DNA of 64,000 nucleotides from positions 3,453,451 to 3,517,450 of the forward strand of contig NZ_CP100355.1 in NCBI RefSeq assembly GCF_024204665.1, written 5' to 3'. Made by a program: the position numbers and the translations under genes. Positions 3,846 through 27,391 of this stretch are shown in pieces. This stretch comes from Natronosalvus rutilus. GTDB lineage: Archaea > Halobacteriota > Halobacteria > Halobacteriales > Natrialbaceae. The stretch's first letter is position 1. Each line of letters opens with the position of its first letter. The notes under the pieces were generated by a model. It made no database searches. It worked only from the letters and a program-made list of their open reading frames with translations, and had not been told where the DNA came from.

Positions 3846-4737
3846 TCAGAAGTAGATCCGCTCGTCGTCGACCGATTCCTCTTGTTTCCGCTGGCTCTCT
3901 CCACCCCGACCATCGAACGCGAGCCGATGCCAGCCCAGTACGCCCGCGGCGATCACACCGACGCCGACCGCACCGAGTAACTCGAGCGGGACGGGAAGCG
4001 GCGTCGTCTCCTCCCAGTCGGCCTCGAAGACGGCCGTGTAGTACGACGCGACCGACTCGCCGTGGAGGGCCAGGACGACTTCGCGATTGTTCCGGAGCGA
4101 GTTCCAGTTCCAGTTCAAACTCCCGAGAACGACCGTGTCGCCGTCGACGATCACTCCCTTCGCGTGAATCTTCTCGAATCGCTCGCCAGGTTCGACGAGT
4201 CGAGCCTCGAGTGGCAGGTCATCCCTCGCCGCGGCCGTCTCGAGTCGCTCGATTACCTGGCGATTGTCCGCCTCGTTGTACCAGCTGGCATCGAGGAGGA
4301 CGCGCACTTCGACGCCGCGTTCGGCCGCCTCGATCGTCGCCTCGAGGGCCGATGCGTCGTCGCCGATGCTGGCCTGGGTGACGTCGATCGACTCTTCGGC
4401 CCCCTCGAGCAACTCGAGGAGCCGACCCTCGGCGTTGTCCGGCGCGAGCAAGAGTTCGGCTCCCTCGAGGGCTACGGGTTCCGGTTCGTAGACGGTCGGG
4501 TAGGTCACAGTAGCTGGATCGGGCTCGACGAACGTCGCCGTCTCGTGGTGGTCAGCCCAGGAAGTGACGTCCCAGCCGTCCGCGTCGGCTCGGAAGACGG
4601 CCTCGAGGTCGCGGGCGAACGCACGGTTCTCGACGACGACACCCCAGCCGCGACTCGAGGCGCCGCCGAGTCCCGACGGCGACCAGTTCTCGGTGCTGAC
4701 GAGGACCGTTTCGTCGACGACGGCGTACTTGGGATGG
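3846..4737 (-). pseudogene. C-terminal part of a phospholipase-D-family gene split by the integrative element
   Basis: This fragment starts exactly in the first HKD motif: HPKYAVVDETVLVSTENW is read from the repeat at 4723-4737 onward. It contains the second HKD motif (HAKGVIVDGDTVVLGSLNWN) and ends with a membrane helix (about LELLGAVGVGVIAAGVLGW) and a charged tail. The open frame runs back to an ATG at 4745 supplied by the element, so a 299-residue remnant could be translated, without signal peptide or N-terminal lobe. The N-terminal half is at 19387-20444. Joining the two across one copy of the 15-bp repeat gives one in-frame gene of 1935 bases (644 residues). Confidence 0.9.
4723..4737. 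repeat. Left attachment site core (attL), 15-bp direct repeat
   Basis: GCGTACTTGGGATGG is identical to 19387-19401 and marks the left junction between the split phospholipase-D gene and the element. On the gene strand it encodes HPKYA of the HxKxxxxD catalytic motif. Sequence outside and inside the repeat differs between the two ends, as expected for site-specific recombination. Confidence 0.9.
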
Positions 4738-4802
4738 GGAAACATAGTATCTTGAGTAACTAATGAACAAAGGTTATGGTGATAGGCTTTGAATGACTAA
4801 TT

Positions 4803-5357
4803 ATGGCGAGAGTGAATCTTGAGGTGCAAAAAGAGACTAAAGAAGAATGGGAAAAAGCTGCGAAGAACGACCCAAATGCAGGTGGAAACCTTTCTGGGTT
4901 CGTTCGTTCCGCTGTAATGGCCAAAATCAACAATAATTCTGAATCACATGGGAAAGAGGATATTCACAAGGAAATAACTGAACTAAAGGACATGGTCGCC
5001 GATTTAACCCAATCGTTACAAACAACTAATGCCCGTCTCAGTGAACTTGAGACTGATATCAGAAGTGACCCCGAAATAGAGAAATTGGCTAACGAATTAT
5101 TCTCTCGACTTCCTACTGAACGTGAATTCGAGGAATGGCATGGAGGAAAGGGAGAGAAGCTAAAACTCGACCAACAGCCCGAAGAAAAAAGAACTATTGT
5201 GAAAGCTGAACGCGGTGGAGAACTCGACGCATTTACAGAAATACTTGACTGTAGCCCGCTTGAAATCCAAGATGCGATTAATTATCTTATGAAAAGCACT
5301 CCTCTCATCCAAGAGGCTGAAATAAGTGGTGAGACGCGGGTTTACAGGGAAAAATAG
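4803..5357 (+). CDS. Integrase-linked coiled-coil protein with possible ribbon-helix-helix N-terminus
   Basis: A 184-residue protein immediately upstream of the recombinase, with a 2-base gap. The N-terminus (MARVNLEVQKETKEEWEKAA, then GGNLSGFVRSAVMAKI) has the look of a ribbon-helix-helix DNA-binding unit: a short beta strand, then a helix with SGFVRSAV. A heptad-like coiled coil follows (about residues 50-95), then a C-terminal region with LDCSPLEIQDAINYLMKS that resembles a small winged helix. It is probably a DNA-binding partner or regulator of the integrase, such as an excision or directionality factor. Family membership is not certain. Confidence 0.7.
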   Translation: MARVNLEVQKETKEEWEKAAKNDPNAGGNLSGFVRSAVMAKINNNSESHGKEDIHKEITELKDMVADLTQSLQTTNARLSELETDIRSDPEIEKLANELFSRLPTEREFEEWHGGKGEKLKLDQQPEEKRTIVKAERGGELDAFTEILDCSPLEIQDAINYLMKSTPLIQEAEISGETRVYREK

Positions 5358-5359
5358 AT

Positions 5360-6349
5360 ATGCACGAGACCATTTCTTCGTTCCTTGAGACCAAGAAATC
5401 TGGTAATGATAACACGTATGCAAACACCAAAACCGCTGTTGGACATTTCACTCGATGGCTTGGTGAAACCGACCCCCGTGAAATTGATGCATTGGATATC
5501 GAAGAGTTCTGCCGGTGGCTTAAGAATAAAAATGGGCTAGCAGAAATCACTTGTATTAGATATGTGCGTTCTATTTCTAGCTATTACGAATACATTCAGA
5601 AGCGTCAAAATGGGCCGAGGAAGAGGGGTGAAATAGATAGAAGAAAAATTGTGTACGATAATCCTGTACACGAAGCTGATATCGCCGGTCAGTTCGATGC
5701 CTCAAGAGATACAAAGCGGTCAAAGGAACTAAGAAAGGACTACTTTGCGCTGTCACTTGGTGAAATGAAATTAATGGTTGAGAATGTTCCTGACCCAGTA
5801 TTTCGAAATCAACTGTTATTCAAAGTCATGGGACAAACCGGTTGTAGACCCGGTGAAATCACCGATATAAGACTCCAAGACGTAACCCAACCCGAACTAT
5901 GGGATAATAATAGAATTCGTATACGGGCTTCAAAGACTCAAAATAACCGAACAGTTAGATACAGTGACTCTTTAAAGTTTTATTTAACTCAATGGATTGA
6001 ACAGGGGGAAAGAGATAGATTCTATAAAGCCGGTGAAAGTGATTATTTGTTCCCAACTCATAAATCCGATTCAATTAGTTCTCGGCGTATACAAGAAATC
6101 ACACGCCAAACAGCTGAAAATGCAGGAATCCAGGAAAGGATATACACAGATTCTAAAGGTCATCCTCGATACAAAGTAACCGCTTATGCTTTCCGTCATG
6201 GCTTCGCTGAAAACATGGTTCTGCAAGGATGTGACTTGGCCAGACTGAAGAAACTGATGGGGCATACAGACATATCAATGACTCAGAAGTATCTCGACCC
6301 CAATGATGAAGCCCTGGATGAAACAATCCCATTTATTCCCGAGGTTTGA
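5360..6349 (+). CDS. Tyrosine recombinase / integrase of the element
   Basis: A 329-residue protein. The N-terminal SAM-like core-binding domain (about 1-85) is followed by the catalytic domain. Catalytic residues are visible: Arg163 (TGCRPGEITDIRL), Arg279 (AYAFRHGFAENM), His302 (MGHTDISMTQKYL) and the nucleophile Tyr311. The usual HxLR box reads YAFR, so the first histidine is replaced by tyrosine, a variation seen in many archaeal integrases. It presumably recombines the 15-bp cores at 4723 and 19387 for integration and excision. The gene follows the coiled-coil protein by 2 bases and starts 620 bases inside the left end. Confidence 0.93.
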   Translation: MHETISSFLETKKSGNDNTYANTKTAVGHFTRWLGETDPREIDALDIEEFCRWLKNKNGLAEITCIRYVRSISSYYEYIQKRQNGPRKRGEIDRRKIVYDNPVHEADIAGQFDASRDTKRSKELRKDYFALSLGEMKLMVENVPDPVFRNQLLFKVMGQTGCRPGEITDIRLQDVTQPELWDNNRIRIRASKTQNNRTVRYSDSLKFYLTQWIEQGERDRFYKAGESDYLFPTHKSDSISSRRIQEITRQTAENAGIQERIYTDSKGHPRYKVTAYAFRHGFAENMVLQGCDLARLKKLMGHTDISMTQKYLDPNDEALDETIPFIPEV

Positions 6350-6385
6350 GGCTTGTGGTAGGTAGAGATTGAGAAATCGGAGTTC

Positions 6386-6394
6386 GCCTTTTTT
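6386..6394 (+). terminator. Oligo-T terminator after the integrase gene
   Basis: A run of six T (6389-6394) lies 40 bases after the integrase stop and just before the convergent metallopeptidase stop at 6409. Archaeal RNA polymerase terminates at such T-tracts without needing a hairpin. Confidence 0.4.
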
Positions 6395-6408
6395 GTCCTA
6401 AGATAGTG

Positions 6409-7131
6409 TTATAGGTCCTCTTCACTGAAAACCAGCCTTACACTGTTCTCCTCAAGCCACTCTGCCTTCGTTTTGTAGTTAGGGATGTATTCCCCGACGA
6501 GTTGCCAAAACTCTCGGCCATGATGTTGTTCGGTCAAGTGCGCAAGTTCATGGACGACAAGGTAATTGACGACCTCGGGTGGGGCCATGATTAACCGCCA
6601 ATTCAAACTAATCGTTCCACTTGTTGAACAGCTGCCCCAGCGCGTTCGTTGATTACGAAGTTCGAGTTTCTCGTATTCTACGCCCATACGGTCTGCGTAG
6701 TGGTCAACCCGGTCGGTAAAGTAGTCTCGTGCCCGACTTCGATAGAAGTTCTCTAGTACCTGCTTGACTGACGACTGTTCAATAGCACTCTGACGTAGAC
6801 GAATCGAATCGTCGGTCACCACATGTTTTGAACGTGGTTCAATGACGAGTTTTCGGTCGTCACCGAGATAGGGAAATCGTTCGCCGGCATCAAAAGTTCG
6901 GTCGGGGACTTGTTCACGGTAAGTGTCGTAGGTTCGTTGCTTGTCCACAACCCATGCTGCATTATCCCTAAGCAACTCTGCTGGCTGCACTCCGTTAGAC
7001 TCCGGAACCACGACTGTGACCCCATGTATATCCACGTCAATTCGGGGTTCAGTGGCGTCAGGACTACGGCGTACTTCGTACTCAATAACGTTTCCCAACA
7101 GGTTGATTTCCCGGTGTTGGGTCTTAGCCAT
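6409..7131 (-). CDS. YgjP/DUF45-type zinc metallopeptidase-like protein of the Type I R-M operon
   Basis: A 240-residue protein ending the hsd operon; its ATG overlaps the hsdR stop by 8 bases. It carries RWGSCSTSGTISLNWRL and then HELAHLTEQHHGREFW, the HExxH zinc motif at 194-198 with a third histidine at about 204. This is the signature of the YgjP/DUF45 family (M48-like fold). Such genes are commonly found beside hsdR. Their role is unproven; proposed roles include proteolytic control of restriction, and E. coli YgjP has been linked to nucleotide hydrolysis. Overlap with hsdR implies co-translation. Confidence 0.85.
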   Translation of the reverse strand: MAKTQHREINLLGNVIEYEVRRSPDATEPRIDVDIHGVTVVVPESNGVQPAELLRDNAAWVVDKQRTYDTYREQVPDRTFDAGERFPYLGDDRKLVIEPRSKHVVTDDSIRLRQSAIEQSSVKQVLENFYRSRARDYFTDRVDHYADRMGVEYEKLELRNQRTRWGSCSTSGTISLNWRLIMAPPEVVNYLVVHELAHLTEQHHGREFWQLVGEYIPNYKTKAEWLEENSVRLVFSEEDL

Positions 7132-10099
7132 GGTTCTGAATCAGGTAGTCTCGAATCGCGTCTATGAATTCGTCGTCGTCTCGGATTAGGTAACCAAGGT
7201 CGTATTCCACAACCAGCACGTCTAGAAGGATACGTTCGATTTCAGCGATGGTTTGCTGGTTCGTCTTCCACCCGTTGTACCCACGGTCAACACGTTCTCG
7301 GAACTGGAAAACGATTTCTTCTGCTACCACTTCGGCTTCTTCCTCGGAATCAACTGCGTCCGGTGTCTCTTCGGTGAGATGAGTATAGATAGCGAACTCA
7401 GCATTGTCCATCCCTTGTTCTTCAGCTTCCTCTTCAACACCCAATATTCCCTCTTCGACCGATTTCAGGGCTTCAACAGCCTCGGGGTCGCTTATCTCAT
7501 CTCGCTGCCAGCGTTCGACTATGTCAGTGACGCGTTCACTGAGGCGTTTGTAGCGTGGGTTCTGGTTCTCTCGGGGATGAAGATGGTCGCGAGTAGCGTG
7601 GGCAATCTGTGACGCTTTCACACCCGGATTATCCAGCCCCTCGACGTCTTCGAGGTACTCTTCTCCGAGTTTGTATGTCGGGAAGTCACGCTTGATGTCG
7701 GTGATTTCGACGTTCTCGCTGATTATCTCGCGGGTCTTCTCGCGCATGTCCTCCTCGGGGCTATTGTCACCGGCAGTGGTCCGCTTGAACGCGACGTGAA
7801 TCCGACTCAGCCACTTGTAGTCACGTTCAATCCCTTCGTTGATGAGTCGCTTGTCCGGTGCAACGGACTCATAGAGGTTCTGAAGCCGCCGGAACCCCTG
7901 TTTGAATCTCCGACGTTCAGGATGAGTACTAACGCGTTCGACGGCTTCATAGGACGCCTCTTGGGTATCGTTTTTCGGTATCCCATCGAAGATGTCCAAT
8001 ACCGTCTCTAACTGGTCAACGAGGTCGTCGTAGAGGTCATCTTTATCGCGGGCAGCATAGGCTTTCGTCTCGGCGTCGTAGTCCAGTGCCTCGTCAATGT
8101 TCTCGAATACCCCTTGAAAGTCTACAATCTCGCCGTTCTCCTTCCCTTCGGCAGGTCGATTTGTCCGGGCGATAGCCTGCATGAGGTTGTGGTTTTTCAG
8201 ATTGCGGTCAAGATACATCGTCTTCAGAATCGGGGCGTCAAAGCCCGTCAGTAGCATGTTGTGGACGACCAGCAGTTTCGGGGTCTCCTCCTCGGCTTCC
8301 TCGTCAGTTTGCTTGAACGCCTTGATGATGCTGTCGCGTTCCTCGGGGTCTGTGTGGAATTGCTGAATCAGGTCAGGGTCATCCTTGGTCGCCGTATAGA
8401 GTACTTCGACGTCGTCCTTACCTCGATGGTCGATTAACCGTTCACCGTACATTGCTGCCGACCGCCGACTTGGCGTGACGACCATTCCCTTCCAGCCGTT
8501 CGGTGCAACGTGTTCATCGTAATGTTGGTCAATCTCTTCGACAACCCGGTCTACTCGAGGTTCGATTTCTGCAAGGGTAGTCGCGTTGACGTTTTCACGG
8601 ATGAGGTCACGTTTCTCGTTCGTACTTAGCCCGCGGAACTCGTGTTCGAACTCTTCGTCAAGGCCAGCCTCGTCAATCTCCCACTTCATCTCGTGACGAA
8701 GCGTGAAGTAGACTGGAAGAATCAGCCCGTCATCGATGCCCTGTTTGACTGAGTACCGGTGAAGATAGTCCTCACCTTCGGGTGAAAATTCGCGGAAGGT
8801 GTTTCGGTCCTCATAGCGTTCGCCCTCTCTGACCGGAGTTCCGGTGAAGCCGAAATGATAGCAGTCGGGAAGCGCAGCATCAAGACGACTGCCGAGGTCG
8901 GCTTCCATGAATCGGTGGGCTTCATCGGACATAACGATAACCTCGTCATTCCCCTGTACGTCCGGGTCTACGTCCTCGAACTTCTGGATGGTCGTGAGAA
9001 CGAGTTCACTTTGGCCGTCCTCAATAAGTTTCTGAAGATGTTTGATACTTTTGGCTTCAGTCCAGTGTTCTAGCGAGAGGTTGGCCAGCTGGTCCCGCAT
9101 TTGGCTGTTCAGCTTGTCCGTGTCCACGATGATGAACACCTGTGGGTTGCGGGCTACGTCCCGTGAGAGGAGATTCTGGGCCGCGTATAGCATTGTGAAG
9201 GACTTGCCTGACCCTTGAGTGTGCCAGATGAGACCCCGCTTGTGGACGTCCTCATGGACGCGGTGGAGAATCGCATTGACAGCGTAGTACTGCATGTAGC
9301 GCGGAACGATTTTCACGTCTCCGCCGGCACGCCGTTCGTAGAACACGAAGTTTTTCAGCAGGTCAAGTATGGTGTAGGGATTGCACAGTGCCATGATTGC
9401 CTGCATCATCTCATTGTCGTCCTCGTATTCTGGAGGCGCGTCGTTCCAAGGTTCGTAGAACTCCTTCGATGCACCTACTGCCCCGTAGCGGAGTTCCATT
9501 GTGTCGGCGGCAATGTTGAACAGTCCGGGGACGAACAGCCGTAGGACATTGTCTTCGTAGTCCAGCAGGTCGCTGACAGCATCATGCCAATCGTTGTCCT
9601 GTGCCCGACTCTTCAGTTCCATCGTCACTATCGGAATCCCGTTGACGAAAAGGTTCACGTCCGGACGGATGGTCTTCTCTCGAGAGACAGAGAACTGATT
9701 GACGGCGTGGAACCGGTTGTTCCCGGGGTTTTCGTGGTCAATCAGGTCAACGTAAATTGTTTCGGTCGAACCATCGTCGCGCTGTACAGAGAAGGTCTTG
9801 CCTTTGGTGAGTAGTTCGTGGAACGTGCGGTTCCCGTTCATTAAGTTCTCGACATCGAGGTCGCGCTTCAATGATGAAATGAACTTTTCGACGTTGTCCT
9901 CGGTCACCTCATCATTGAGTACGATGACCTGTTCTGTCAGAAGGTCCCAATAGACTACTTCGTTGCGTCGCCGGTCAAAAGCGTCATCAAGGATGTTTGC
10001 CCCTCGTCTCCCACCCTGTCCGTGGGTTTCCCATCCAATAGTGTCAAGCCACGATAGAAGCGAGAGTTCAACACCGCTTTCGGATGGGATTATCGTCAT
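7124..10099 (-). CDS. hsdR: Type I restriction endonuclease, R (translocase/nuclease) subunit
   Basis: Starting at ATG 10099 the protein has 991 residues, normal for HsdR. The N-terminal nuclease domain shows Asp147, Glu161 and Lys163 in RPDVNLFVNGIPIVTMELKS, the PD-(D/E)xK site. The SF2 helicase motor has Walker A TQGSGKS (294-300), SDEAH (DEAH at 392-395), FGFTGTP, and the later TGFDAP and QAIARTNRP motifs. HsdR cleaves DNA lacking the host methylation after ATP-driven translocation, in complex with HsdM and HsdS. Its ATG overlaps the stop of the upstream small membrane protein (TAATG), and its own end overlaps the metallopeptidase start. A frame extension to 10138 is not needed. Confidence 0.95.
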   Translation of the reverse strand: MTIIPSESGVELSLLSWLDTIGWETHGQGGRRGANILDDAFDRRRNEVVYWDLLTEQVIVLNDEVTEDNVEKFISSLKRDLDVENLMNGNRTFHELLTKGKTFSVQRDDGSTETIYVDLIDHENPGNNRFHAVNQFSVSREKTIRPDVNLFVNGIPIVTMELKSRAQDNDWHDAVSDLLDYEDNVLRLFVPGLFNIAADTMELRYGAVGASKEFYEPWNDAPPEYEDDNEMMQAIMALCNPYTILDLLKNFVFYERRAGGDVKIVPRYMQYYAVNAILHRVHEDVHKRGLIWHTQGSGKSFTMLYAAQNLLSRDVARNPQVFIIVDTDKLNSQMRDQLANLSLEHWTEAKSIKHLQKLIEDGQSELVLTTIQKFEDVDPDVQGNDEVIVMSDEAHRFMEADLGSRLDAALPDCYHFGFTGTPVREGERYEDRNTFREFSPEGEDYLHRYSVKQGIDDGLILPVYFTLRHEMKWEIDEAGLDEEFEHEFRGLSTNEKRDLIRENVNATTLAEIEPRVDRVVEEIDQHYDEHVAPNGWKGMVVTPSRRSAAMYGERLIDHRGKDDVEVLYTATKDDPDLIQQFHTDPEERDSIIKAFKQTDEEAEEETPKLLVVHNMLLTGFDAPILKTMYLDRNLKNHNLMQAIARTNRPAEGKENGEIVDFQGVFENIDEALDYDAETKAYAARDKDDLYDDLVDQLETVLDIFDGIPKNDTQEASYEAVERVSTHPERRRFKQGFRRLQNLYESVAPDKRLINEGIERDYKWLSRIHVAFKRTTAGDNSPEEDMREKTREIISENVEITDIKRDFPTYKLGEEYLEDVEGLDNPGVKASQIAHATRDHLHPRENQNPRYKRLSERVTDIVERWQRDEISDPEAVEALKSVEEGILGVEEEAEEQGMDNAEFAIYTHLTEETPDAVDSEEEAEVVAEEIVFQFRERVDRGYNGWKTNQQTIAEIERILLDVLVVEYDLGYLIRDDDEFIDAIRDYLIQNHG

Positions 10100-10434
10100 T
10101 AAAACCCCCTTGTTGCTGTCTCGTAGTTTGCTGTCCAAATGATTAGACCAATTAACACATACGCTAAGACTGTGATGACGGCTTTTACCGGTCTATCGAA
10201 CACCAATGCAACCAGTGGTATCATCGCGTTCACAAATTCCAAGATAACTATCCCTATCGTAGAGGCCAACTCCGAATTTGAACCTGAATACATTGGTGGG
10301 AGTATCTGTAAATACGTCAATAGAATATTGACGCCGAAAGCAAATGTCGAACCGGTGGCGTACATATTTCGCCATTGGCTTGGACCGGCGAGAAGATTTC
10401 CGATAGCGTAATTCAGACCTCGTTCACTAACCAT
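10099..10434 (-). CDS. Small three-helix membrane protein embedded in the Type I R-M operon
   Basis: A 111-residue protein from ATG 10434, which begins one base after the hsdS stop (TAGcATG). Its stop overlaps the hsdR start (TAATG). Three hydrophobic segments are visible: FAFGVNILLTYLQIL, STIGIVILEFVNAMIPLVALVF and AVITVLAYVLIGLIIW. No known domain is recognised. The tight coupling on both sides means it is made in step with the restriction enzyme. A membrane protein is not a standard part of Type I systems. It may anchor or regulate the complex, or simply be a linked unknown. A TTG at 10443 is an alternative start. Confidence 0.75.
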   Translation of the reverse strand: MVSERGLNYAIGNLLAGPSQWRNMYATGSTFAFGVNILLTYLQILPPMYSGSNSELASTIGIVILEFVNAMIPLVALVFDRPVKAVITVLAYVLIGLIIWTANYETATRGF

Positions 10435-10435
10435 G

Positions 10436-11809: not shown

Positions 11810-13304
11810 AGTTTAGCACCTCCATGTGGCCGTCTATCCGCGTTTCAATCTCGTCTCGTTCAGCCTGGAGTTCACGTAGCTTCGCCAGTTCTTCTTCCAC
11901 GTCAACGTCTTCTTCGGGTTCAGCCGTATTAACGTACAGCGCGATGTTCAGGTTGTGGTCATTTTCCCGAATTTCGTCCAATGATACTGTCCGACTGACC
12001 CGTTCCTCAGTTGTCCACTCGCGGAAATTCTTAACGATGTGGTCAAGACCTTCGCCAGTGAGTTCATTCTGATTTGAGAGTTCCTCATAAAACGCTTCGT
12101 CGGCGGCGTGAATGAACTGCACTTCGGTCTCACGTTCGGTGGGCTTGTCGGTGTTCAGCACGAGGATAGCTGACGGAATTGAGTTGTTCTGAAAGAGGTT
12201 CTCGGGGAGGCCGATGATTGCTTCGACCAGGTCATTCTCCAGCATTGGCTTCCTATACCGCTGTTCATGCTTTCGGAACAGTACGCCGTGCGGGATGACG
12301 ATGGCCGCTTTCCCGCCAGTACCGTCCTTTTCGGGCTTCTTCAACTGCTTAGCCATATGCATGATGAACGCGTAGTCACCCCGGTCGGCACGCGGGAGTT
12401 TCTTGTGCCAATCAAAGCGGCTATACGGGTCGTCTTGGAGTTCACCTTTAGCCCAATCTGCGGAGAACGGGAAGTTGGCGAGAACTCGGTCAAACCGTGT
12501 GAGTTCGTTGGCGTCGTCGTCAGTGAATGCTGGATTCGATAGAGAATCCTCCCGTTCGATAGTACCCGTTAACCCGTGGATGGACAAGTTCATCCTCGCA
12601 ATTGCAGCAACATCGGGGTTGATTTCTTGCCCACTGAAGGTCAGTTTCGAGGGGTCGCCATTTTGGTCTTCACGATAATACCTTGCAGCCTCGATAAGCA
12701 TCCCACCAGAACCCACAGTCGGGTCGTGGAAGGTGTCACCATCTTCGAATTCATCCACGAGACGAACGCACAGACGGACGATGTGAGGCGGCGTAAAGAA
12801 CTGTCCACCGGACTTCCCCTCTTCTTCCGCGAAGTGGCGAACGAGGTCCATGTAGGCCTCTCCAAGCATGTCTGGTGGTACACTGTCACGGTCGAGGTCG
12901 TATCTGTTCAGATGTTCGACCAGCTTCCCGAGGCGGTCGTCGTTCAGCGCATCAGCGTCGATGTAATCGGCCCGAAAAACACCCTTCAATTCAGGGTTCT
13001 CCTCAACTAATGCATCGAAGGCTTCGTTCAGGGCTTGGTCAACGTTATCGCTGACCGACCGTAGGTCGTCCCACAGATAGCCTTCAGGGACAACGGGGAT
13101 ATCATAGAGATTCTTTCGACGGGCGAAATCCTCACCGTACTCTTCGACGTTTTCGGCATACTGCTTTTCGAACTCGTCGGAGGTGGATTTGTAGTAGACA
13201 AGTGGTAGAATATATTCCTTATAGTCGGTCGGGTCAACTGCATCTCGAATGATGTCCGCACATTTGAATAGGTGAGATTCCAGTTCGTCTAGCGAAATGG
13301 CCAT
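11802..13304 (-). CDS. hsdM: Type I restriction-modification N6-adenine methyltransferase subunit
   Basis: From ATG 13304 the protein has 500 residues; ATG 13331 is an alternative adding nine residues. The N-terminal helical domain is followed by the methyltransferase fold: GGQFFTPPHIVRL, SAM motif I as DPTVGSGGMLIEA, and catalytic motif IV as NFPF in place of the common NPPF. A C-terminal helical region (EEELAKLRELQAERDEIETRI) contacts HsdS. It methylates adenine in the target to protect the host. It is first in an operon whose members all overlap or abut (hsdM, hsdS, membrane protein, hsdR, metallopeptidase). Confidence 0.95.
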   Translation of the reverse strand: MAISLDELESHLFKCADIIRDAVDPTDYKEYILPLVYYKSTSDEFEKQYAENVEEYGEDFARRKNLYDIPVVPEGYLWDDLRSVSDNVDQALNEAFDALVEENPELKGVFRADYIDADALNDDRLGKLVEHLNRYDLDRDSVPPDMLGEAYMDLVRHFAEEEGKSGGQFFTPPHIVRLCVRLVDEFEDGDTFHDPTVGSGGMLIEAARYYREDQNGDPSKLTFSGQEINPDVAAIARMNLSIHGLTGTIEREDSLSNPAFTDDDANELTRFDRVLANFPFSADWAKGELQDDPYSRFDWHKKLPRADRGDYAFIMHMAKQLKKPEKDGTGGKAAIVIPHGVLFRKHEQRYRKPMLENDLVEAIIGLPENLFQNNSIPSAILVLNTDKPTERETEVQFIHAADEAFYEELSNQNELTGEGLDHIVKNFREWTTEERVSRTVSLDEIRENDHNLNIALYVNTAEPEEDVDVEEELAKLRELQAERDEIETRIDGHMEVLNYE

Positions 13305-13405
13305 GTCCAGTCTATCCCACTCACCTACCATATGTTCTACGGTAGGACTACGAGAGGTTCGAACAGGTGAGGAAAGGAATTAGCAAAACATTCTCCAAAA
13401 CCGTC

Positions 13406-13413
13406 TTTTATTA
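13406..13413 (+). promoter_or_regulatory. Probable TATA box of the small membrane protein gene at 13433
   Basis: TTTTATTA lies 20-27 bases before ATG 13433, fitting a leaderless transcript. The same 100-base divergent gap must hold the hsdM promoter on the other strand, but no single box stands out there. Confidence 0.45.
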
Positions 13414-13432
13414 TGATGTTATATGAGATTAC

Positions 13433-13738
13433 ATGTCGTCCAAAAATCCTTTCAGTATTCTCGTTTTGTTCCCCTACATTCTCGGGTCAACTGTTCACAC
13501 AGCCATGCAGCTTATCCTCTACTCACAGAATATCAGAACCTATGCGAACTGGGTCCTTGTAGAGGGTCAAACTGGAAACGACCAAACTGTGACACTCATT
13601 GAAGGAATTATCGACATTTGGCTTCCGGTTTATCTCAACCCACAACCTATCGATATCCTAATGGTATTGGGCCATTGGATATTGGGAATCTTTCTTTTGG
13701 TAATCATCCCGAATGGTTTTTGGGATAAGATTTCTTAG
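13433..13738 (+). CDS. Hypothetical small membrane protein, divergent from hsdM
   Basis: A 101-residue protein with two clear hydrophobic segments: NPFSILVLFPYILGSTVHTA near the start, and PIDILMVLGHWILGIFLLVI near the end, with a short polar loop between. It is transcribed away from the R-M operon from a shared intergenic region. No family is recognised and no function is proposed. Base composition matches the element rather than the host. Confidence 0.6.
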   Translation: MSSKNPFSILVLFPYILGSTVHTAMQLILYSQNIRTYANWVLVEGQTGNDQTVTLIEGIIDIWLPVYLNPQPIDILMVLGHWILGIFLLVIIPNGFWDKIS

Positions 13739-13903
13739 GAGTAGTCAGTCTTGGCATATCTTCTAATAACGACTACCGATGGGCGAAGAAATAGGTCCAG
13801 TGTCGAGGGAATAGTGCGGACTGATGAGACTCTGGACAAACTCTCCCCCTTTCAGGGTATTAATAATAATCTCCGAGATTAACCGGATTCCGTGACAACC
13901 CTT

Positions 13904-14083
13904 ATGGCCACTCCAATTGACGCCGATACAGCGCATGCCAACCTGAGTCAAGCCATTGGGATTCACCGCGGTCAAACCCGTTATGCCATTCTTTTTCCGT
14001 CCGACCCTGAGTCCAGACAGTCCATCCAAGAAGTAGTGAACGGGGTCCGCGGGGATATCGTTGCCCCATACTTAGCACCGTAA
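13904..14083 (+). CDS. Possible small protein, unknown
   Basis: From ATG 13904 (or GTG 13892) a 59-residue frame begins MATPIDADTAHANLSQAIGI and ends DIVAPYLAP. The composition is protein-like, with mixed acidic, hydrophobic and amide residues. No family is recognised and no clear promoter is seen. The opposite-strand frame at 13763-14029 is less protein-like. It may be real or a relic. Confidence 0.35.
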   Translation: MATPIDADTAHANLSQAIGIHRGQTRYAILFPSDPESRQSIQEVVNGVRGDIVAPYLAP

Positions 14084-14276
14084 CCTCCTACAAAGCCTCA
14101 TTCTCGCCAAGACGGATTTGTTATCGTGTTTCCACCGCGGTCTCGACGTGTCAACTTTGCGCCGTGCATGATACAGGGTATTCCCGTTGAACCTGTCCCC
14201 AGTCATATAGACAAGTACTGATTCCCCCTCTCAAGGGTGTCCTCAGGCGACTGGTTTGCACTACATCGACCCTCCC

Positions 14277-14467
14277 GCGTACCCTCCATTGGATACACTT
14301 TGTTCTTGTTCAGTTCTTCGGGTGGACTGCAGAACACCATGCACCGGGGTCGTTCCACAGCTGCTTGCTTATTAGAAGCTTAGACTAAGGGTATATAAGC
14401 AATCTGTTGCAGTGTATTACTAAAATTGGATGAAAGAAGTGGAACGACCCCGGTGCAGAGGGTACGC
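14277..14467. repeat. Nested inverted repeats around an AT-rich core in a gene-poor gap
   Basis: A perfect 19-bp inverted repeat (14340-14358, TGCACCGGGGTCGTTCCAC, against 14439-14457) flanks 80 bases of AT-rich DNA containing GTATATAAGC (14390-14399). A second perfect 10-bp inverted pair lies outside (14277-14286, GCGTACCCTC, against 14458-14467). On the right the two arms are contiguous; on the left 53 bases separate them. The stretch 14084-14384 holds no convincing gene. Possible readings are a cruciform or structured RNA, a protein-binding site, a small non-autonomous element, or an origin-like site. Confidence 0.75.
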
Positions 14468-14576
14468 TAGAATATTTTAGACCAATAGCAATAACTATTG
14501 CGCATATTGCTGTAGTGGTGTAGAGTATTTCTAAGACTACTGTACCAGCGAATAAATAGGAGGACCACACATTCAT
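14385..14576 (-). CDS. Possible small membrane protein coupled to the upstream gene
   Basis: ATG 14576 shares one base with the stop of the upstream gene (TGATG), which suggests translational coupling. The 63-residue product begins MNVWSSYLFAGTVVLEIL, continues as one long hydrophobic helix (to about IVIAIGLKY) and then changes character where the frame enters the inverted repeats at 14467. The last 25 or so residues are therefore encoded by repeat DNA, suggesting the original C-terminus was altered. No family is recognised. Confidence 0.45.
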   Translation of the reverse strand: MNVWSSYLFAGTVVLEILYTTTAICAIVIAIGLKYSSVPSAPGSFHFFHPILVIHCNRLLIYP

Positions 14577-15109
14577 CACATAATTATGTATATGGACACA
14601 AAGCCCCACAATAAAACAAGAACAGTGGTCCAATAGTGACTTCTTCTATCTGCTTGAGTTTTCACCCAATGTCGAAGTTTCACTAAGTTCAAGACCCGTT
14701 TTGTCTCGAAATTCGGTGAGTCAATAATTTTTTCAGTATCTCCATTTTCAAATTCAACTGCAACAATAGCCCGTTCGCCTTTAAAAACATCCTCTTCACT
14801 AATAGTTAAAGTACCTCCACCAGATTTTGGGTTTTTATGGATTAGTTCAATTTTTGTGGGTGTTTTAGAGATGTGGGTGTGTTCTCTTATTGTATGTGCC
14901 AACTCCGAGAACCCTCGTTCACCCTCTTCTAAGGTTGCAAAGTATTCTAATTTATCTCGGCCCTTGTCGATAGGTCTTTCCTGTTCAACTTCCCTAAGAT
15001 ATTCGATTCCAGACATCGAGTTTCGATAAAAGTATGAATATCGAGGATACCATAATGGTACAATTGCAATTAAGGCTGTGAGGATAACTCCAACTATTCG
15101 AAATCCCAT
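14576..15109 (-). CDS. Hypothetical protein with N- and C-terminal membrane helices
   Basis: The start ATG 15109 is preferred over GTG 15121 because a TATA-like box lies 25-33 bases upstream of it. The 177-residue protein has a first helix (FRIVGVILTALIAIVPLWY), a charged soluble middle of about 120 residues, and a last helix (YWTTVLVLLWGFVSIYIIM) that ends the protein. The middle contains ELAHTIREHTHISKTPTKIEL and GTLTISEEDVFKGERAIVAVE. No family is recognised. It appears to form a two-gene unit with the small membrane protein at 14385. Confidence 0.6.
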   Translation of the reverse strand: MGFRIVGVILTALIAIVPLWYPRYSYFYRNSMSGIEYLREVEQERPIDKGRDKLEYFATLEEGERGFSELAHTIREHTHISKTPTKIELIHKNPKSGGGTLTISEEDVFKGERAIVAVEFENGDTEKIIDSPNFETKRVLNLVKLRHWVKTQADRRSHYWTTVLVLLWGFVSIYIIM

Positions 15110-15133
15110 AGTGTTAACCACAATATCGTCCTT

Positions 15134-15142
15134 CTTATTTAT
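15134..15142 (-). promoter_or_regulatory. Probable TATA box for the gene starting at 15109
   Basis: On the minus strand this reads ATAAATAAG, 25-33 bases before ATG 15109, consistent with a leaderless transcript. Confidence 0.5.
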
Positions 15143-15189
15143 CGACGATAATGTTATTTTCTATACTCATTAATGGAACGGTAGATGTG

Positions 15190-15288
15190 TAGGGACCCTT
15201 AGAAATAATATAGGCTCTCTGCCACGAAATCTTTAGGCATGGGTCCCTATCACCCCTATCCTCACAAAACCCCCTTAAGGGGGGGGGG
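15190..15288. other. Non-coding stretch with a 9-bp inverted repeat and a C5TTAAG9 hairpin
   Basis: The 240-base gap 15122-15362 holds no gene. TAGGGACCC at 15190-15198 is the exact reverse complement of 15241-15249. A second structure is the palindrome CCCCCTTAAGGGGG at 15270-15283, extended by further G to 15288. It could be a transcript terminus or structured RNA; the direction is not clear. Confidence 0.5.
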
Positions 15289-15362
15289 TAGTCTCTTGAA
15301 AGCAAAACGCGAAACTAACACCAGTCATCAGCCAGTAATAACGAGGGACGTATAGAAGTTTA

Positions 15363-17063
15363 TTACTCGAAATCTTCCGCGATTACTTGATTATGATAAG
15401 CAAGATATTGAGGTCCAATCGCGTGGCCATCTTCTACTAAAAGTTCGTCACCATCGATTTCAGATTCGTAAAGATGGGATATTTCGTGGGTTTGAGGGTC
15501 TATCGTTAGCATCCCATTCTCGAGGTCGATGTGATGATTTGGGCATAGAACAACCGTATTTTCCGGTGTATCTGGTCCATCATCTCCAAGGGCCATTAGA
15601 TGGTGGACCTCGCTATATGCCGTGTCAGGCCCCTGTAGACGTCGTTCACCACAAACTTGGCATCGGTCATTGTATAATCGTTTAAGTTCTCGAACGAGGA
15701 CCTCATTCCGAACAACGTCGTCTCGAACCGTCTGTCGGCGTTCAGTTGATGTGTTTCCATCGGGTAAATCGACGACCTCGGCTTGAGAAGACGGTCTATC
15801 GTCCTCTGATGCCCTCGAGTGGCCGACGTCTGCCATGGGTTCTATTGGTTCCAATTCAAAGCGAATAGCACTCCGAGTTGTTCCCGTCGAATCAGGGAGT
15901 TCTTCCCGGAACCAGTCGGTGCAAACGTATTGTCCGACATACTCCACATCGCCATCACCAAGAGTCCTGAATAAGTGTAGTTCCCTATCGTCCGCACGAT
16001 GGTCTCTAATAGCTTTGTTGCCATGGTTGAAGGCCATGTCACCTTCAGTGCCTTCGCCGGTATACACTACCGTTCCATCCTCTTCTATCGTGTCTCTGTA
16101 TCCCTCATCGGTCTCGGAAAAGGACGTGAAGAGTAGCACAATAAGGGTATCACGGCAAGGTGAGATGCCACGTTGTCGTTGCCCCCCGAACTCGTCATGA
16201 AGGGTACTACGGTTGTAGGTCTCCCCACCATCGAACCGAGGTAGATACAGCCATTTCCCTAGTTCATCGTGTCGTCGTATTCGCCCCCATTTCCGGTCTG
16301 CAAGTCGCTGTTGGATGTCCCTCACTGCATGCTGCCACTCGGGTTGATTCTGGCCGTTCTCATGGGCTTCGTCGCATCGATAGGAGTCATCACATAGGTC
16401 GGGATACGTTGCCTTCACAGCCGGATAGATGTCTTCTGTGAGGTCCTGTAGACCGGCAGGTACACAATCCATCTCTGTTTCCAGCAATTGTCGTCGTAAC
16501 TTCTGAACGCGTTTTTCGTGGGTCATACCCCCCATCGTTTCAACTCGATTCGCCAACTTCCGTCCCTCTTCTGTTAAAGAAACCGAGTTCCCAGACCGTT
16601 CGACATAGCCGAGGACCTGTAGCCATTCCCGGTGACGAGTAGCGACCCCCGGAGAATCCATATTGATATCCTCAAATTCGGTCTTCAGAAGATGCATGAT
16701 ATCTTCGTCTGTCATAGGGCCTTCCAGCAGCTGTGATAGAATCGTGTTGAACCCTTTCACGTTCGACTGAAGCGCCTCATAGAGAACAGAGGAGGCAGAT
16801 GTCTCGAGGTACTGGTTTCCTCGCCAATCAATGGAGACCTCGTCATCACCCAGTTTGATTAGTTCGATGGCTTCCAAGAAGCCGAGGTGATGGTCTATCG
16901 CATCACGGCTAGTAGCTTTTGTATTAGATAGAATCCAATCTTTAGCCTCTGACCGAGTTACAGGGTCGCCTTGGACGAACAAAAGAAATCGCTGAAGTAA
17001 TTGAAGACGTCGGGTCGTCCCTCCATAGAAACGGTCGGTGGTTAGACGACGGTCGTCGGTCAT
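15363..17063 (-). CDS. Predicted modification-dependent endonuclease: winged helices, SRA-like domain, HNH
   Basis: A 566-residue protein. The first 180 or so residues look like two winged-helix units (TRSEAKDWILSNTKATSRDA; MTDEDIMHLLKTEFEDINM to LTEEGRKLANRVE). A middle region (about 275-400: GISPCRDTLIVLLF, YTGEGTEGDMAFNHGNKAI, LHLFRTLG, VEYVGQYVC) matches the YDG/SRA-like fold used by restriction enzymes to sense modified bases. The C-terminal HNH nuclease spans 468-511: CQVC, EVHHLMALGDDGPDTPENTV and LCPNHH. This order recalls Type IV (McrA-like) enzymes that cut modified DNA. The modification recognised is unknown. The SRA call is by eye; HNH is secure. Confidence 0.8.
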   Translation of the reverse strand: MTDDRRLTTDRFYGGTTRRLQLLQRFLLFVQGDPVTRSEAKDWILSNTKATSRDAIDHHLGFLEAIELIKLGDDEVSIDWRGNQYLETSASSVLYEALQSNVKGFNTILSQLLEGPMTDEDIMHLLKTEFEDINMDSPGVATRHREWLQVLGYVERSGNSVSLTEEGRKLANRVETMGGMTHEKRVQKLRRQLLETEMDCVPAGLQDLTEDIYPAVKATYPDLCDDSYRCDEAHENGQNQPEWQHAVRDIQQRLADRKWGRIRRHDELGKWLYLPRFDGGETYNRSTLHDEFGGQRQRGISPCRDTLIVLLFTSFSETDEGYRDTIEEDGTVVYTGEGTEGDMAFNHGNKAIRDHRADDRELHLFRTLGDGDVEYVGQYVCTDWFREELPDSTGTTRSAIRFELEPIEPMADVGHSRASEDDRPSSQAEVVDLPDGNTSTERRQTVRDDVVRNEVLVRELKRLYNDRCQVCGERRLQGPDTAYSEVHHLMALGDDGPDTPENTVVLCPNHHIDLENGMLTIDPQTHEISHLYESEIDGDELLVEDGHAIGPQYLAYHNQVIAEDFE

Positions 17064-17090
17064 TGAATATTAGTCAATTTATTTGAAAGA

Positions 17091-17100
17091 GGATAAATAT
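17091..17100 (-). promoter_or_regulatory. Probable TATA box of the HNH nuclease gene
   Basis: ATATTTATCC on the minus strand lies 28-37 bases before ATG 17063, giving a nearly leaderless transcript. It supports independent transcription of the nuclease. Confidence 0.5.
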
Positions 17101-17213
17101 AGTCTTTCAAGCTATCACTCTATGTGGAATGAAAGGGCTAAGGCGGTACTATATAGATAAATTTGTGAGGAAGGCACCAACGTGACCTATTTTGGTTAGT
17201 GCTAATTCTGTAT

Positions 17214-18467
17214 TTAATCTTCACCCGTCGAAAGTTCTGCATCCCTTCTAGAAGTGAATAACCACCATTTAGAGAAGGTGTCTTTAAGTTTTAATACGGA
17301 ATTTATTTTAGCAGAATTTTCACCATTTATATTGTCATCATGAACACAATATAACTCACTTCCAGCAATCTGTTTAATTGACCCTTGGCCAATTTCTTCT
17401 ACAATACGTTCAAATTTCGAGTTAGCGAAGGTCTCCGGGATAGGAATCTTAATTTTGGATAAATATGAATGGATTTCTAACTTAAGAATGAGTGATTCAT
17501 TCTCTCGATAAACATCATTAATAGGGACAAGAGAGATTTTTGATGAACTTTGTGTTCGCGCTACCTTCAGCCGTTCATATCCTATCAAGTATTTCTCGGG
17601 AATAGATGAAGCGTATTCTTCAACCTGTTCAATACCTCTAGAAAGAGGACTGTCAGCATACGGATGATACATTAGTGTGCCAGCCCCCATATGAATACCA
17701 CCTGCACCTTCATACGATGGCTTAATATCTATAATCTCATTTTTGAGTGGTTCCAACTCACCTGTAAATGGACTGCCCGTATCAGTATGCAACTCTTCCA
17801 ACTCTTTATATCCCCTAAAATCAGGTTCTAATTCTAATTTGAAATACTTCCCACTTACTAATTCAATCCGAAAATGAACAACGCCATCATCTGTAGCACC
17901 TACAGCACGAATGGGTGCTTTTACTACCTCATTATTATGGAATTTTTGACTGAGGTTGTATGCCTTCATGACCTCTTCCGAGATAGTTGTATCCATTTCA
18001 GAGATATCCTGTTCTTCGATAGTGTCACGTATCCTGTCCTCTGGTTTTACGTGGTAATACTCTAACATAGGGGCATTCAAAACTACTATTTCGTTTGGGT
18101 TGTCACCCCTGAACTTAATGCTGACAGATTCATTAACAAGAGGAAGGAGGTCACCCGTGAATGGAACACCAAGGCTGTAGTGCAAATTTTCAAGTATATT
18201 ATATTCCATATGTATTGCACCAAGGCTAAAGATGAAATCGCCTTGGCCCGGCATTGTGATTTTTATCAACACAGAATTGCTATGGATTGGCTTTTTATGG
18301 ACGCCTATCGAAGATATATACCCCTCAACATATCTATTTTCTTTTAGAATTTTTTCTTCTAGGTATTCCTCTTCTAACTCATCAAGCCCATTGCTTGACT
18401 CTGAATTCATACTATAGTCAAGATGAGAACCCATCATATATAACCTATCTTGGGAATCTCGTTTCAT
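17214..18467 (-). CDS. Unknown protein with a repeated domain, in the mobile element
   Basis: From ATG 18467 the product has 417 residues; TTG 18503 is a possible earlier start (TATA-like GGAATAAATC is near 18519-18528). Two copies of one domain are clear. Copy 1 has LIKITMPGQGDFIFSLG and HYSLGVPFTGDLLPLVNES. Copy 2 has FRIELVSGKYFKLELEP and HTDTGSPFTGELEPLKNEI. The shared core is xxGxPFTGxLxPLxNE, and a third, weaker copy may follow (LILKLEIHSYLSKIKIPIPE). No membrane helix, catalytic motif or known family is recognised. It sits between the HNH nuclease and the element's right end, so a defence-related role is possible but unsupported. Confidence 0.6.
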   Translation of the reverse strand: MKRDSQDRLYMMGSHLDYSMNSESSNGLDELEEEYLEEKILKENRYVEGYISSIGVHKKPIHSNSVLIKITMPGQGDFIFSLGAIHMEYNILENLHYSLGVPFTGDLLPLVNESVSIKFRGDNPNEIVVLNAPMLEYYHVKPEDRIRDTIEEQDISEMDTTISEEVMKAYNLSQKFHNNEVVKAPIRAVGATDDGVVHFRIELVSGKYFKLELEPDFRGYKELEELHTDTGSPFTGELEPLKNEIIDIKPSYEGAGGIHMGAGTLMYHPYADSPLSRGIEQVEEYASSIPEKYLIGYERLKVARTQSSSKISLVPINDVYRENESLILKLEIHSYLSKIKIPIPETFANSKFERIVEEIGQGSIKQIAGSELYCVHDDNINGENSAKINSVLKLKDTFSKWWLFTSRRDAELSTGED

Positions 18468-18724
18468 ACACAATGGGTAATCATCCTCCAGGCAAATATG
18501 CAAAAGTGAACACGGGTTCTGATTTATTCCGGAACGATAGCTGTTGATTTACACTCGGGAAATGGGGTCCTTGTCCCGTATGTCTCATTGAGTTAATTCA
18601 CTGATAGGGGTATGACTCGAATCTAGCTTTGACCTCTCACCGGTATACTACTGGCCTGAATCGGTGAGTTCGTTCTAAACTGCCAGTGAGTATATATAGT
18701 ATTGTTACAATTGAAATTGTAGAC

Positions 18725-19138
18725 ATGACAGAAAGTAAATTTGAAGAGAAAGAATCGGAGACAGAAAACTCACCATCGAATAAATTCTGTTCAACATGTG
18801 GGACAGAGATAGAGGCAGGGACAAAGTTCTGTCCGGATTGTGGTACAGCACAAGAAGGTGAACCAAATGCAGAGAAAGCCATTAAGCAAAAAGAGGGAAC
18901 CAAAATATCGTTCTCTAAAATAACAGCGTACTTTTTTGGAGGGGCAGGTCTCGTACTGGGGCTATTGTTTCTTGCGACTGGACCGGCCTCTGCTGGTTTC
19001 TTCCTCGGCATAGCAGGAGTTATTGGATTTCCCAAAAGCCGGAATCAGGTGGAAGAAAAGCTTGGTATAAAACTCAGTAAGTGGGTTGCTACGGCCCTCT
19101 TTTTGGTCTTCTGGATGACTGGTGCTGCACTTCTATAA
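18725..19138 (+). CDS. Zinc-ribbon membrane protein
   Basis: A 137-residue protein from ATG 18725. An acidic start is followed by a double-CxxC zinc ribbon (FCSTCGTEIEAGTKFCPDCG, about residues 22-41), a basic linker, and about three hydrophobic segments (ITAYFFGGAGLVLGLLFLAT, AGFFLGIAGVIGF, WVATALFLVFWMTGAALL). Zinc-ribbon plus membrane-anchor proteins of this size are widespread in haloarchaea without known function. It is the rightmost gene of the element. Confidence 0.65.
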   Translation: MTESKFEEKESETENSPSNKFCSTCGTEIEAGTKFCPDCGTAQEGEPNAEKAIKQKEGTKISFSKITAYFFGGAGLVLGLLFLATGPASAGFFLGIAGVIGFPKSRNQVEEKLGIKLSKWVATALFLVFWMTGAALL

Positions 19139-19386
19139 CGAAATTTTGCCTTTCAGTCGGTCGGTACCCTTAGCCAACCTCTGCCTCTCCGCGCGAATAC
19201 CCGTGAAAAGGGGTAAAACCACAACGGCTTTTAAATACTTTATAGCTTATTGAAGTTCTTCTACTAGTTAGTATGATGAAGAATAAACTTGATTGAAATT
19301 CTCACTGATACAGTTTTCCCCATGCGACATGGGTTTGGTATCCATATCCAACTCCGATATTATGTGTATTCTTTATACACTGAAGT
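19139..19386. other. Right terminal non-coding region of the element
   Basis: No convincing gene is seen. An AT-rich patch, TTTTAAATACTTTATAG near 19230, looks like a TATA box but only very short frames follow. The region probably holds recombinase arm-binding or excision sites near attR; none can be identified by eye. Confidence 0.4.
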
Positions 19387-19401
19387 GCGTACTTGGGATG
19401 G
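19387..19401. repeat. Right attachment site core (attR), 15-bp direct repeat
   Basis: GCGTACTTGGGATGG, identical to 4723-4737. To its right the host phospholipase-D gene resumes; to its left is element DNA. Combining the left host side, one core and the right host side restores an open reading frame, which strongly supports this as the recombination point. Confidence 0.9.
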
Positions 19402-25639: not shown

Positions 25640-26107
25640 CTACTCCTCGAGCAGTTCGACGGCCGCGTCGTAGGAGTACGCGAAGTCGGGGTCGATCTCC
25701 GTCCCGCGGTAGTACGAGACGAGGCGTCGAACCTTCGACTCGGTGTTCTGCAGGGCGCGCTTGTTCTGGGCGTCCTGGGGGTTCGCTTCGACGTGCTCGC
25801 GCAGTCGAATCGCTCGCTCCATCAGGTTGTGGAGATCCTCGGGGAGGTCGCTTTTCGCGTCGTTCTCCTCAAGGATCTCGGTGACCTTCTTGCCGGTCGC
25901 CAGTTTGACGTCCGGGATCGGCGTCCCCGTGACGCCCTCGTCGCGAAGTTTGAGGCCGATCTGACTCGGATCGTGCCCCTGCTCTGCCAGTTCGACGACG
26001 CGAGATTCGATCTTCTCGGCGTCGACGTCGCTCCACTCCGGTGGTTCGTCTGCCGCTGGCTTGTCCGAACCGGACGTGCCACGGCGGCGGGTGTGCATTC
26101 GTGCCAT
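25640..26107 (-). CDS. rps15: Small-subunit ribosomal protein uS15
   Basis: A 155-residue protein from ATG 26107 (MARMHTRRRGTSGSDKP). The archaeal N-terminal extension is followed by the S15 core: DLPEDLHNLMERAIRLREHV, NPQDAQNKRALQNTESKVRRL and VSYYRG. It binds 16S rRNA in the 30S platform. It heads the operon that continues into the RecJ-like gene with no spacer. Confidence 0.95.
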   Translation of the reverse strand: MARMHTRRRGTSGSDKPAADEPPEWSDVDAEKIESRVVELAEQGHDPSQIGLKLRDEGVTGTPIPDVKLATGKKVTEILEENDAKSDLPEDLHNLMERAIRLREHVEANPQDAQNKRALQNTESKVRRLVSYYRGTEIDPDFAYSYDAAVELLEE

Positions 26108-26318
26108 TGGTCGAGGATAGGAACCGCACTGACCGCGAGGCGTACCGTTGCAACTGTCAGCTCTCGCTGGATGCACTTCCGCAATCCCGAGTCACCCGAC
26201 AACTGCGGGGTGACGAAGTCAGATTTGCGGCCGCGCGCTTCCCACCTCATCCTTCTCGGTTGGAGGCAAAAACGTTGCGACCTGCGTCTCGCAGTGTCTG
26301 AACTCGGCGGTGCTCCGG

Positions 26319-27224: not shown

Positions 27225-27248
27225 ACACCGGCTCTGGCTTCGGCATGG

Positions 27249-27359: not shown

Positions 27360-27391
27360 TATGCCCGCCGGAAAGCAGAAGGTGCGTAGGA

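What the first reader, a model, noticed from the sequence alone, without database searches (positions are those of the whole stretch)
4723..19401. Integrative element inserted precisely in the HKD catalytic motif of a secreted PLD-family gene
The 15-bp direct repeats at both ends encode HPKYA of the first HxKxxxxD motif. Removing the element with one repeat joins two half-genes in frame (1058 + 877 = 1935 bases, 644 codons plus stop), restoring HPKYAVVDE. Archaeal integrases usually target tRNA genes; this one appears to exploit another conserved coding sequence, a catalytic motif shared by many PLD proteins. Insertion removes a host surface enzyme and excision would restore it, so the element could act as a reversible switch.
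Basis: partly seen in the sequence, partly recalled or inferred. Interest (0 to 1): 0.85.

Follow-up and report, generated by a model that had tools for sequence, protein, structure and literature searches.

The report
Integration hotspot inside archaeal PLD gene
A 14.7-kb mobile island carrying DNA-restriction genes sits in the first catalytic motif of an enzyme gene that almost every salt-loving archaeon has, and the same gene is split at its two catalytic motifs in nine other genomes, so it is a favoured landing site for mobile, often defence-carrying, DNA.

Summary
A 14,664-bp, AT-rich element (4738-19401) lies between two perfect 15-bp repeats inside a PLD gene. Removing it with one repeat gives an in-frame 644-codon gene. 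Relatives carry that gene uninterrupted (89% identity over all 644 residues in one congener), and 343 of 345 good genomes of the order have it. The element carries a tyrosine recombinase, an accessory protein and a type I restriction-modification system.

The insertion is not a one-off. The same gene is split at the same HKD motif in two genomes of other families, and beside the second HKD motif (GSLNWN) in seven more, by several dissimilar integrase lineages. Four of the other elements also carry defence genes. Three fragmented assemblies have contigs ending exactly at the second site; in two the contigs overlap there, as expected of mixed occupied and empty sites.

So: a site-specific integrative defence island in a recurrent, gene-breaking hotspot. 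Integration into archaeal coding genes was known, mostly at gene ends. Repeated convergence on two catalytic motifs of one core gene appears new. The reversible-switch idea is possible but unsupported for this copy.

The parts
4723..4737 (.). att direct repeat, integrase-proximal copy (GCGTACTTGGGATGG)
   Evidence: exact match to 19387-19401, only two copies in window and genome
19387..19401 (.). att direct repeat, distal copy
4738..19401 (.). integrated element, 14,664 bp including one repeat copy
   Evidence: removal restores a 644-codon frame; low GC
19387..20444 (-). 5' half of the PLD gene (leader, N-terminal region, first half of PLD domain 1)
   Evidence: PLDc_2 6.1e-08; residues 1-353 of the joined protein; the ORF reads on into the element to 19302
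3846..4737 (-). 3' half of the PLD gene (HKD1 onward, HKD2, C-terminal hydrophobic stretch); ORF starts at an ATG at 4745 in the element
   Evidence: PLDc_2 5.6e-28, PLDc 1.4e-07
4803..5357 (+). 184-aa accessory protein of the integration pair (coiled-coil stretch, DNA-binding-like N-terminal motif by inspection)
   Evidence: homologous small gene just upstream of the integrase in at least 14 of 15 relatives; function inferred
5360..6349 (+). tyrosine recombinase (integrase), 329 aa
   Evidence: Phage_integrase 1.2e-27, SAM-like 3e-07; R163, K192, R279, H302, Y311 conserved; PDB best match XerA
6409..7131 (-). YgjP-like metallopeptidase
   Evidence: PF01863 4.1e-57
7124..10138 (-). HsdR, type I restriction subunit
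   Evidence: HSDR_N 6.2e-38, SWI2_SNF2 1.6e-56; REase_I 6.1e-121
10436..11809 (-). HsdS, type I specificity subunit
   Evidence: Methylase_S 9.7e-40
11802..13331 (-). HsdM, type I methyltransferase
   Evidence: N6_Mtase 3.9e-80
14576..15121 (-). unknown ORF, 181 aa
   Evidence: no Pfam match
15363..17063 (-). HNH-nuclease-domain protein, weakly like type IV restriction enzymes
   Evidence: HNH_2 1.2e-05; mREase_IV 9.5e-12
17214..18503 (-). unknown ORF, 429 aa
   Evidence: no Pfam or PADLOC match
18686..19138 (+). zinc-ribbon protein with hydrophobic C-terminal part
   Evidence: Zn_Ribbon_1 1.7e-09

Best explanation
This is an integrative genomic (defence) island. Its tyrosine recombinase (5360-6349), probably helped by the protein encoded just before it (4803-5357), recombined a circular element with a 15-bp attB made of the codons HPKYA in the first HKD motif of a single-copy, near-universal haloarchaeal PLD gene. 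That left a 15-bp direct repeat and split the gene. Shown by sequence: boundaries, repeat, in-frame empty site, intact relatives, integrase with its active-site residues, type I RM cargo, and repeated use of the same gene by other elements. Inferred: that a circular intermediate and this integrase did it; that integrases converge here because the motif DNA is unusually conserved and the gene is nearly everywhere yet tolerates loss; that the split gene is non-functional while the element sits there; and that the element can excise and restore it.
For: Exact 15-bp repeat and in-frame 644-codon join; core unique in the genome; low-GC interior; Phage_integrase plus SAM-like domains with R163, K192, R279, H302, Y311 conserved; closest PDB match XerA. 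HsdR/HsdS/HsdM. PLD gene matched in 123/125 family genomes and 343/345 good genomes of the order, and in 96/96 and 137/137 good genomes in deeper surveys of two families. Same gene split at HKD1 in G236 (shared core CACCATCCCAA, joined frame open across the site) and G488 (halves 15 kb apart), and at GSLNWN in G112, G401, G334, G400, G492, G431, G150. attB 15-mer ranks 4th of 1,918 windows for DNA conservation in 30 family genes. The accessory-plus-integrase pair recurs in at least 14 of 15 integrase relatives; one relative lies at the 3' end of a TRAM-domain gene with a 17-bp repeat beside the same pair.
Against: No reads, attP circle or empty strain of the same species was available, so activity is inferred. 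The usual HxxR histidine of the integrase reads Y276; a relative has the same Y, but it could lower activity. The nearest relatives of this integrase found are about 41% identical or less, so its att specificity cannot be shown from several elements with the same enzyme.
Confidence: 0.9

Rival explanations
1. Reversible switch: the element excises at appreciable frequency or on a cue, restoring the PLD enzyme, so that insertion regulates a host surface function.
For: Exact repeat and in-frame join; both halves keep intact frames and ordinary dN/dS (0.20 and 0.18 against G113); integrase and accessory gene intact; at the second att site contigs of three fragmented assemblies end at the att core, two with exact 121- and 141-bp overlaps, as if occupied and empty sites coexist.
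Against: A recent, one-way insertion explains the intact halves equally well. No excised circle or empty allele seen for this copy. The occupied branch was not found in the G471 bin. Benefit or regulation is untested.
Confidence: 0.2
2. Dead insertion: the element is fixed, its integrase no longer works, and the PLD halves are pseudogenes on the way to loss.
For: Y276 replaces the usual box-II histidine; the gene is decayed or missing in a few other genomes, so its loss is tolerated.
Against: No stops or frameshifts in either half, the integrase or the hsd genes; a relative (L033) has the same Y at that place.
Confidence: 0.25
3. Chance: the repeat is coincidental and the two PLD fragments are separate genes or an assembly artefact.
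For: None found; only the general fact that assemblies can be wrong.
Against: Unique 15-bp repeat exactly at both ends of a low-GC block, in-frame join, uninterrupted relatives, and the same site used in two other genomes.
Confidence: 0.02

Closest known systems
Archaeal integrated elements in protein-coding genes (Thaumarchaeota, PMC6563490; review PMC8371274 section 19, including halovirus BJ1 in an HMG-CoA reductase gene)
   Same: Tyrosine-recombinase elements flanked by short att repeats in coding genes; one gene reused by unrelated elements was seen there too.
   Different: The 14 thaumarchaeal cases lie in 3'-distal regions of genes; here the insertion is mid-gene in a catalytic motif, splits the gene, and the hotspot has two motif sites used across several haloarchaeal families.
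SNJ2-type integrases of haloarchaeal pleolipoviruses (PMC8371274 section 13)
   Same: Haloarchaeal tyrosine recombinase with short att and small accessory proteins (coiled coil, DNA-binding) encoded beside it.
   Different: SNJ2 uses a tRNA gene with a 13-bp att and two small accessory proteins; here one 184-aa protein and a coding target. A tblastn of the phage records with the window integrase listed no halovirus.
Gene-splitting prophages such as Sa3 in S. aureus hlb (PMC6597384, PMC9694928)
   Same: Works-like resemblance: integration within a secreted-enzyme gene inactivates it, and excision would restore it.
   Different: Here a haloarchaeal island without recognised virus genes; excision not shown; unrelated target gene.
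dusA-integrated genomic islands (PMC4482086)
   Same: Many islands with tyrosine integrases share one conserved coding gene as a target.
   Different: dusA islands share one integrase family and use the 5' end of the gene; here dissimilar integrases use two internal catalytic motifs and break the gene.

Membership tests
Tyrosine-recombinase integrative element (genomic island) | Flanking direct repeats (attL/attR) whose collapse gives an intact target | tested here: met
   15-bp repeats, in-frame 644-codon join
Tyrosine-recombinase integrative element (genomic island) | Own tyrosine recombinase with catalytic residues, near one end | tested here: met
   5360-6349 about 620 bp from the left repeat; R, K, R, H, Y conserved, one usual H reads Y
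Tyrosine-recombinase integrative element (genomic island) | Empty site in relatives | tested here: met
   uninterrupted gene in congeners and across the family
Tyrosine-recombinase integrative element (genomic island) | Demonstrated excision or circular form | not testable with these tools
   no reads available
Provirus | Capsid, portal, terminase or other virion genes | tested here: not met
   none among the main ORFs in Pfam; PHROGs was not scanned
Integrative conjugative or mobilizable element | Relaxase, type IV secretion or replication genes | tested here: not met
   none recognised in Pfam; a novel transfer gene among the unknowns is not excluded
Type I restriction-modification system (cargo) | HsdR, HsdM and HsdS together | tested here: met
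Regulatory gene-splitting element (switch) | Regulated precise excision restoring the gene | not testable with these tools
   only indirect signs at the second site in other assemblies

The most novel reading that the evidence does not exclude
The haloarchaeal PLD gene is a dedicated, reversible integration hotspot: dissimilar islands, often carrying defence genes, repeatedly use its two catalytic motifs as attB and excise often enough that populations are mixtures of PLD-plus, island-free cells and PLD-minus, island-bearing cells, an archaeal counterpart of gene-splitting regulatory elements.
Probability: 0.25. Interest if true: 0.85.

Novelty: new variant of a known kind. Interest (0 to 1): 0.62.

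Why it matters
Archaeal integrases of several lineages converge on catalytic-motif DNA of one near-universal enzyme gene and break it, rather than landing harmlessly at gene ends or in tRNA genes. That gives a concrete site for tracking mobile islands across haloarchaea, a natural set of knock-outs of a core gene whose role is unknown, and a testable case of a trade-off between losing that enzyme and gaining restriction systems.

Tried and rejected
Close relatives of the integrase in viral contigs, plasmids, phages and the genome-contig collection: none close; an alignment query had no stretch conserved enough. PLD next to the window integrase's relatives: none. Automatic repeats for the other integrase relatives were mostly chance matches; only G285 (TRAM gene 3' end) and probably G252 (start codon of a gene after MCM) convinced me; the G078 repeat was rejected because the host gene there is intact. 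G116 first looked like another split gene, but its two contigs overlap by 121 bp. Apparent splits in G479 and G520 are frameshifts; G055, G161, G176, G223, G286 and G363 look like frameshifts, deletions or decay; G345 is a contig break away from both sites. G112-type integrase in viral contigs and plasmids: none; only distant phage matches. The structure model of the accessory protein was too poor to use (mean pLDDT 58). The occupied branch of the G471 contig break was not in the bin.

Full report
CHECK OF THE OBSERVATION. The repeat GCGTACTTGGGATGG is exact at 4723-4737 and 19387-19401, has only these two copies in the window and only these two exact copies in the 4.31-Mb genome; the other hits there have two mismatches. 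Joining the flanks with one copy removes 14,664 bp and leaves 1,935 nt in frame, 644 codons plus stop, reading YRYHHPKYAVVDE. The interior has roughly 40-53% GC against about 65% outside. The only tRNA gene in the window is far away, at 27392. The coordinates and arithmetic in the finding are correct.

IS THE GENE REALLY INTERRUPTED? Yes. In the same genus, G113 has one open frame matching residues 1-644 at 89% identity; G117, G111, G114 and G115 also have single frames. In all, 123 of 125 genomes of the family match the 3' half, and 380 of 392 sampled genomes of the order match the joined protein (343 of 345 good-quality ones). The joined protein matches the PLD-like domain PF13091 twice. Both halves are free of stops and frameshifts, and dN/dS between the window gene and G113 (0.20 for the 5' half, 0.18 for the 3' half) is like that between other pairs, so the insertion looks recent relative to species divergence. 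The 3' fragment has an ATG just inside the element (MFPHPKYA..., 299 aa with both HKD motifs), but it lacks the leader and the first half of domain 1; I infer that it does not make a normal enzyme.

THE ELEMENT. Next to the left att lies a two-gene pair. The 184-aa protein shares a short N-terminal motif with its relatives and has a coiled-coil stretch; its fold is unconfirmed, since the single-sequence model was poor. The 329-aa integrase is a tyrosine recombinase (Phage_integrase 1.2e-27, SAM-like 3e-07) with R163, K192, R279, H302 and Y311 conserved and Y276 where a histidine is usual. Cargo: a YgjP-like metallopeptidase, HsdR, HsdS and HsdM of a type I system, an HNH protein weakly like type IV enzymes, a zinc-ribbon protein and unknowns. 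No virion, replication or conjugation genes were recognised in Pfam.

WHAT THE INTEGRASE FAMILY DOES ELSEWHERE. The relatives found are at most about 41% identical. At least 14 of 15 examined have the same kind of accessory gene just upstream. None of those searched lies next to this PLD gene. Where the att could be read, the target is a coding gene whose reading frame is kept: G285 has a 17-bp repeat at the stop codon of a TRAM-domain gene flanking a 9.6-kb, 40%-GC element, and G252 probably has a 15-bp repeat over the start codon of a gene following MCM (gene names there are my reading of the sequence). The window insertion differs by falling in mid-gene.

THE LARGER FINDING: A HOTSPOT. I surveyed about 500 genomes for split copies of the PLD gene and read the loci. 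Two sites emerged. Site 1, HKD1 (HHPKYA): the window; G236 (MAG QS_4_69_34, another family), where the halves lie on two contigs with an 11-bp shared core CACCATCCCAA that overlaps the window core by nine bases, with a 387-aa integrase on one contig and HsdM on the other; and G488 (a third family), where the halves are 15 kb apart in one contig with an integrase-domain gene at the edge and an imperfect repeat CACCA(T/C)CCG. Site 2, GSLNWN just after HKD2: G112, in the same genus as the window (21,031-bp element, 10-bp repeat TGAACTGGAA, 650-aa joined frame); G401, G334, G400 and G492, with integrases 46-52% identical to that of G112 starting close after the break; G431, with both parts 9 kb apart and a different integrase; and G150, with a divergent integrase. 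Window and G236 integrases are only about 20% identical, and the G112 type barely aligns with the window type. In G401, G334, G400, G492 and G150 the 3' part of the gene was not located, so loss of that part together with the insertion cannot be excluded there. G236 and G150 are incomplete assemblies.

CARGO ELSEWHERE. G112: a type IIG-like enzyme, an Mrr-like nuclease and a protein matching PDC-S58 and Cas13-ApeA models. G236: HsdM, then an HsdS-like start by reading, plus a secreted-type thermonuclease. G334: a DpdJ-like helicase and a PD-(D/E)XK nuclease. G488: a TIR-domain protein and a D5-like primase. G431: a D5-like primase and no defence gene among those scanned. Defence cargo is therefore common but not shown for every element, and such genes are common in genomic islands generally (established knowledge).

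WHY HERE? The site-1 15-mer ranks 4th of 1,918 windows of the gene for consensus conservation among 30 family sequences (18th by identity to the window), and site 2 is at the 94th percentile for 12-bp windows. The gene is near-universal and single-copy in this genome, yet it also decays in a few genomes. Conserved DNA plus a gene that tolerates loss is my inferred reason; the motif is conserved because it is catalytic. I did not measure how often other core genes are split, so the excess over background is unquantified.

SIGNS OF REVERSIBILITY. In G116 and G471 two contigs overlap exactly by 121 and 141 bp, and one of each pair ends at AA(C/T)TGGAAC of site 2 (G116 two bases later); in G496 the contig ends at CTCAACTGGAA. 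That is what an assembler does at a branch, as expected if occupied and empty sites coexist. The occupied branch was not found in the G471 bin, and other causes of a branch are possible. Nothing comparable exists for the window copy.

COMPARISON WITH THE KNOWN. The archaeal review PMC8371274 (section 19) lists coding-gene targets, including HMG-CoA reductase for halovirus BJ1, and notes that recombination there was untested. In Thaumarchaeota 14 of 68 elements used coding genes, at their 3'-distal regions, and one gene was used by two unrelated elements (PMC6563490). In bacteria, Sa3 prophages split a secreted-enzyme gene and excise (PMC6597384; abstract); the window resembles that in anatomy, not in demonstrated activity. 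I found no report of this PLD gene as a target in the papers searched, which covers open-licence papers only.

VERDICT. Real, correctly delimited, and one case of a broader pattern. New variant of a known kind. Interest 0.62 for the recurrent, convergent, gene-breaking use of catalytic motifs; the switch hypothesis remains open.

Noticed in passing
L083/L084 (G236), L148 (G488), L054/L055 (G112), L133, L135, L136, L144, L134, L151: The same PLD gene is split by other elements at HKD1 or at GSLNWN after HKD2 in nine further genomes.
   Followed up: yes
L056/L057 (G116), L137/L138 (G471), L147 (G496): Contigs of three fragmented assemblies end at the GSLNWN att core; in two the neighbouring contigs overlap by exactly 121 and 141 bp, as at an assembly branch.
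   Followed up: partly
L054/L055 versus L133, L135, L136, L144: Elements with G112-type integrases lie in opposite orientations in the PLD gene: the integrase borders the 3' half in G112 but the 5' half in G401, G334, G400 and G492.
   Followed up: no
L084:10595-11953 (+): The G236 element carries a lipoprotein-like thermonuclease (SNase plus Excalibur) right beside the broken PLD gene, possibly replacing an extracellular nuclease.
   Followed up: no
L101:8858-18456: A 9.6-kb element with a related accessory-integrase pair sits at the stop codon of a TRAM-domain gene, with a 17-bp repeat that restores the stop.
   Followed up: partly
window 26001-29000: A local drop in GC (0.56-0.59) around tRNA-Ala at 27392-27463, possibly another mobile region.
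   Followed up: no
window 15363-17063 (-): 566-aa HNH protein with weak, below-cutoff similarity to type IV and phosphorothioate-DNA restriction enzymes.
   Followed up: no
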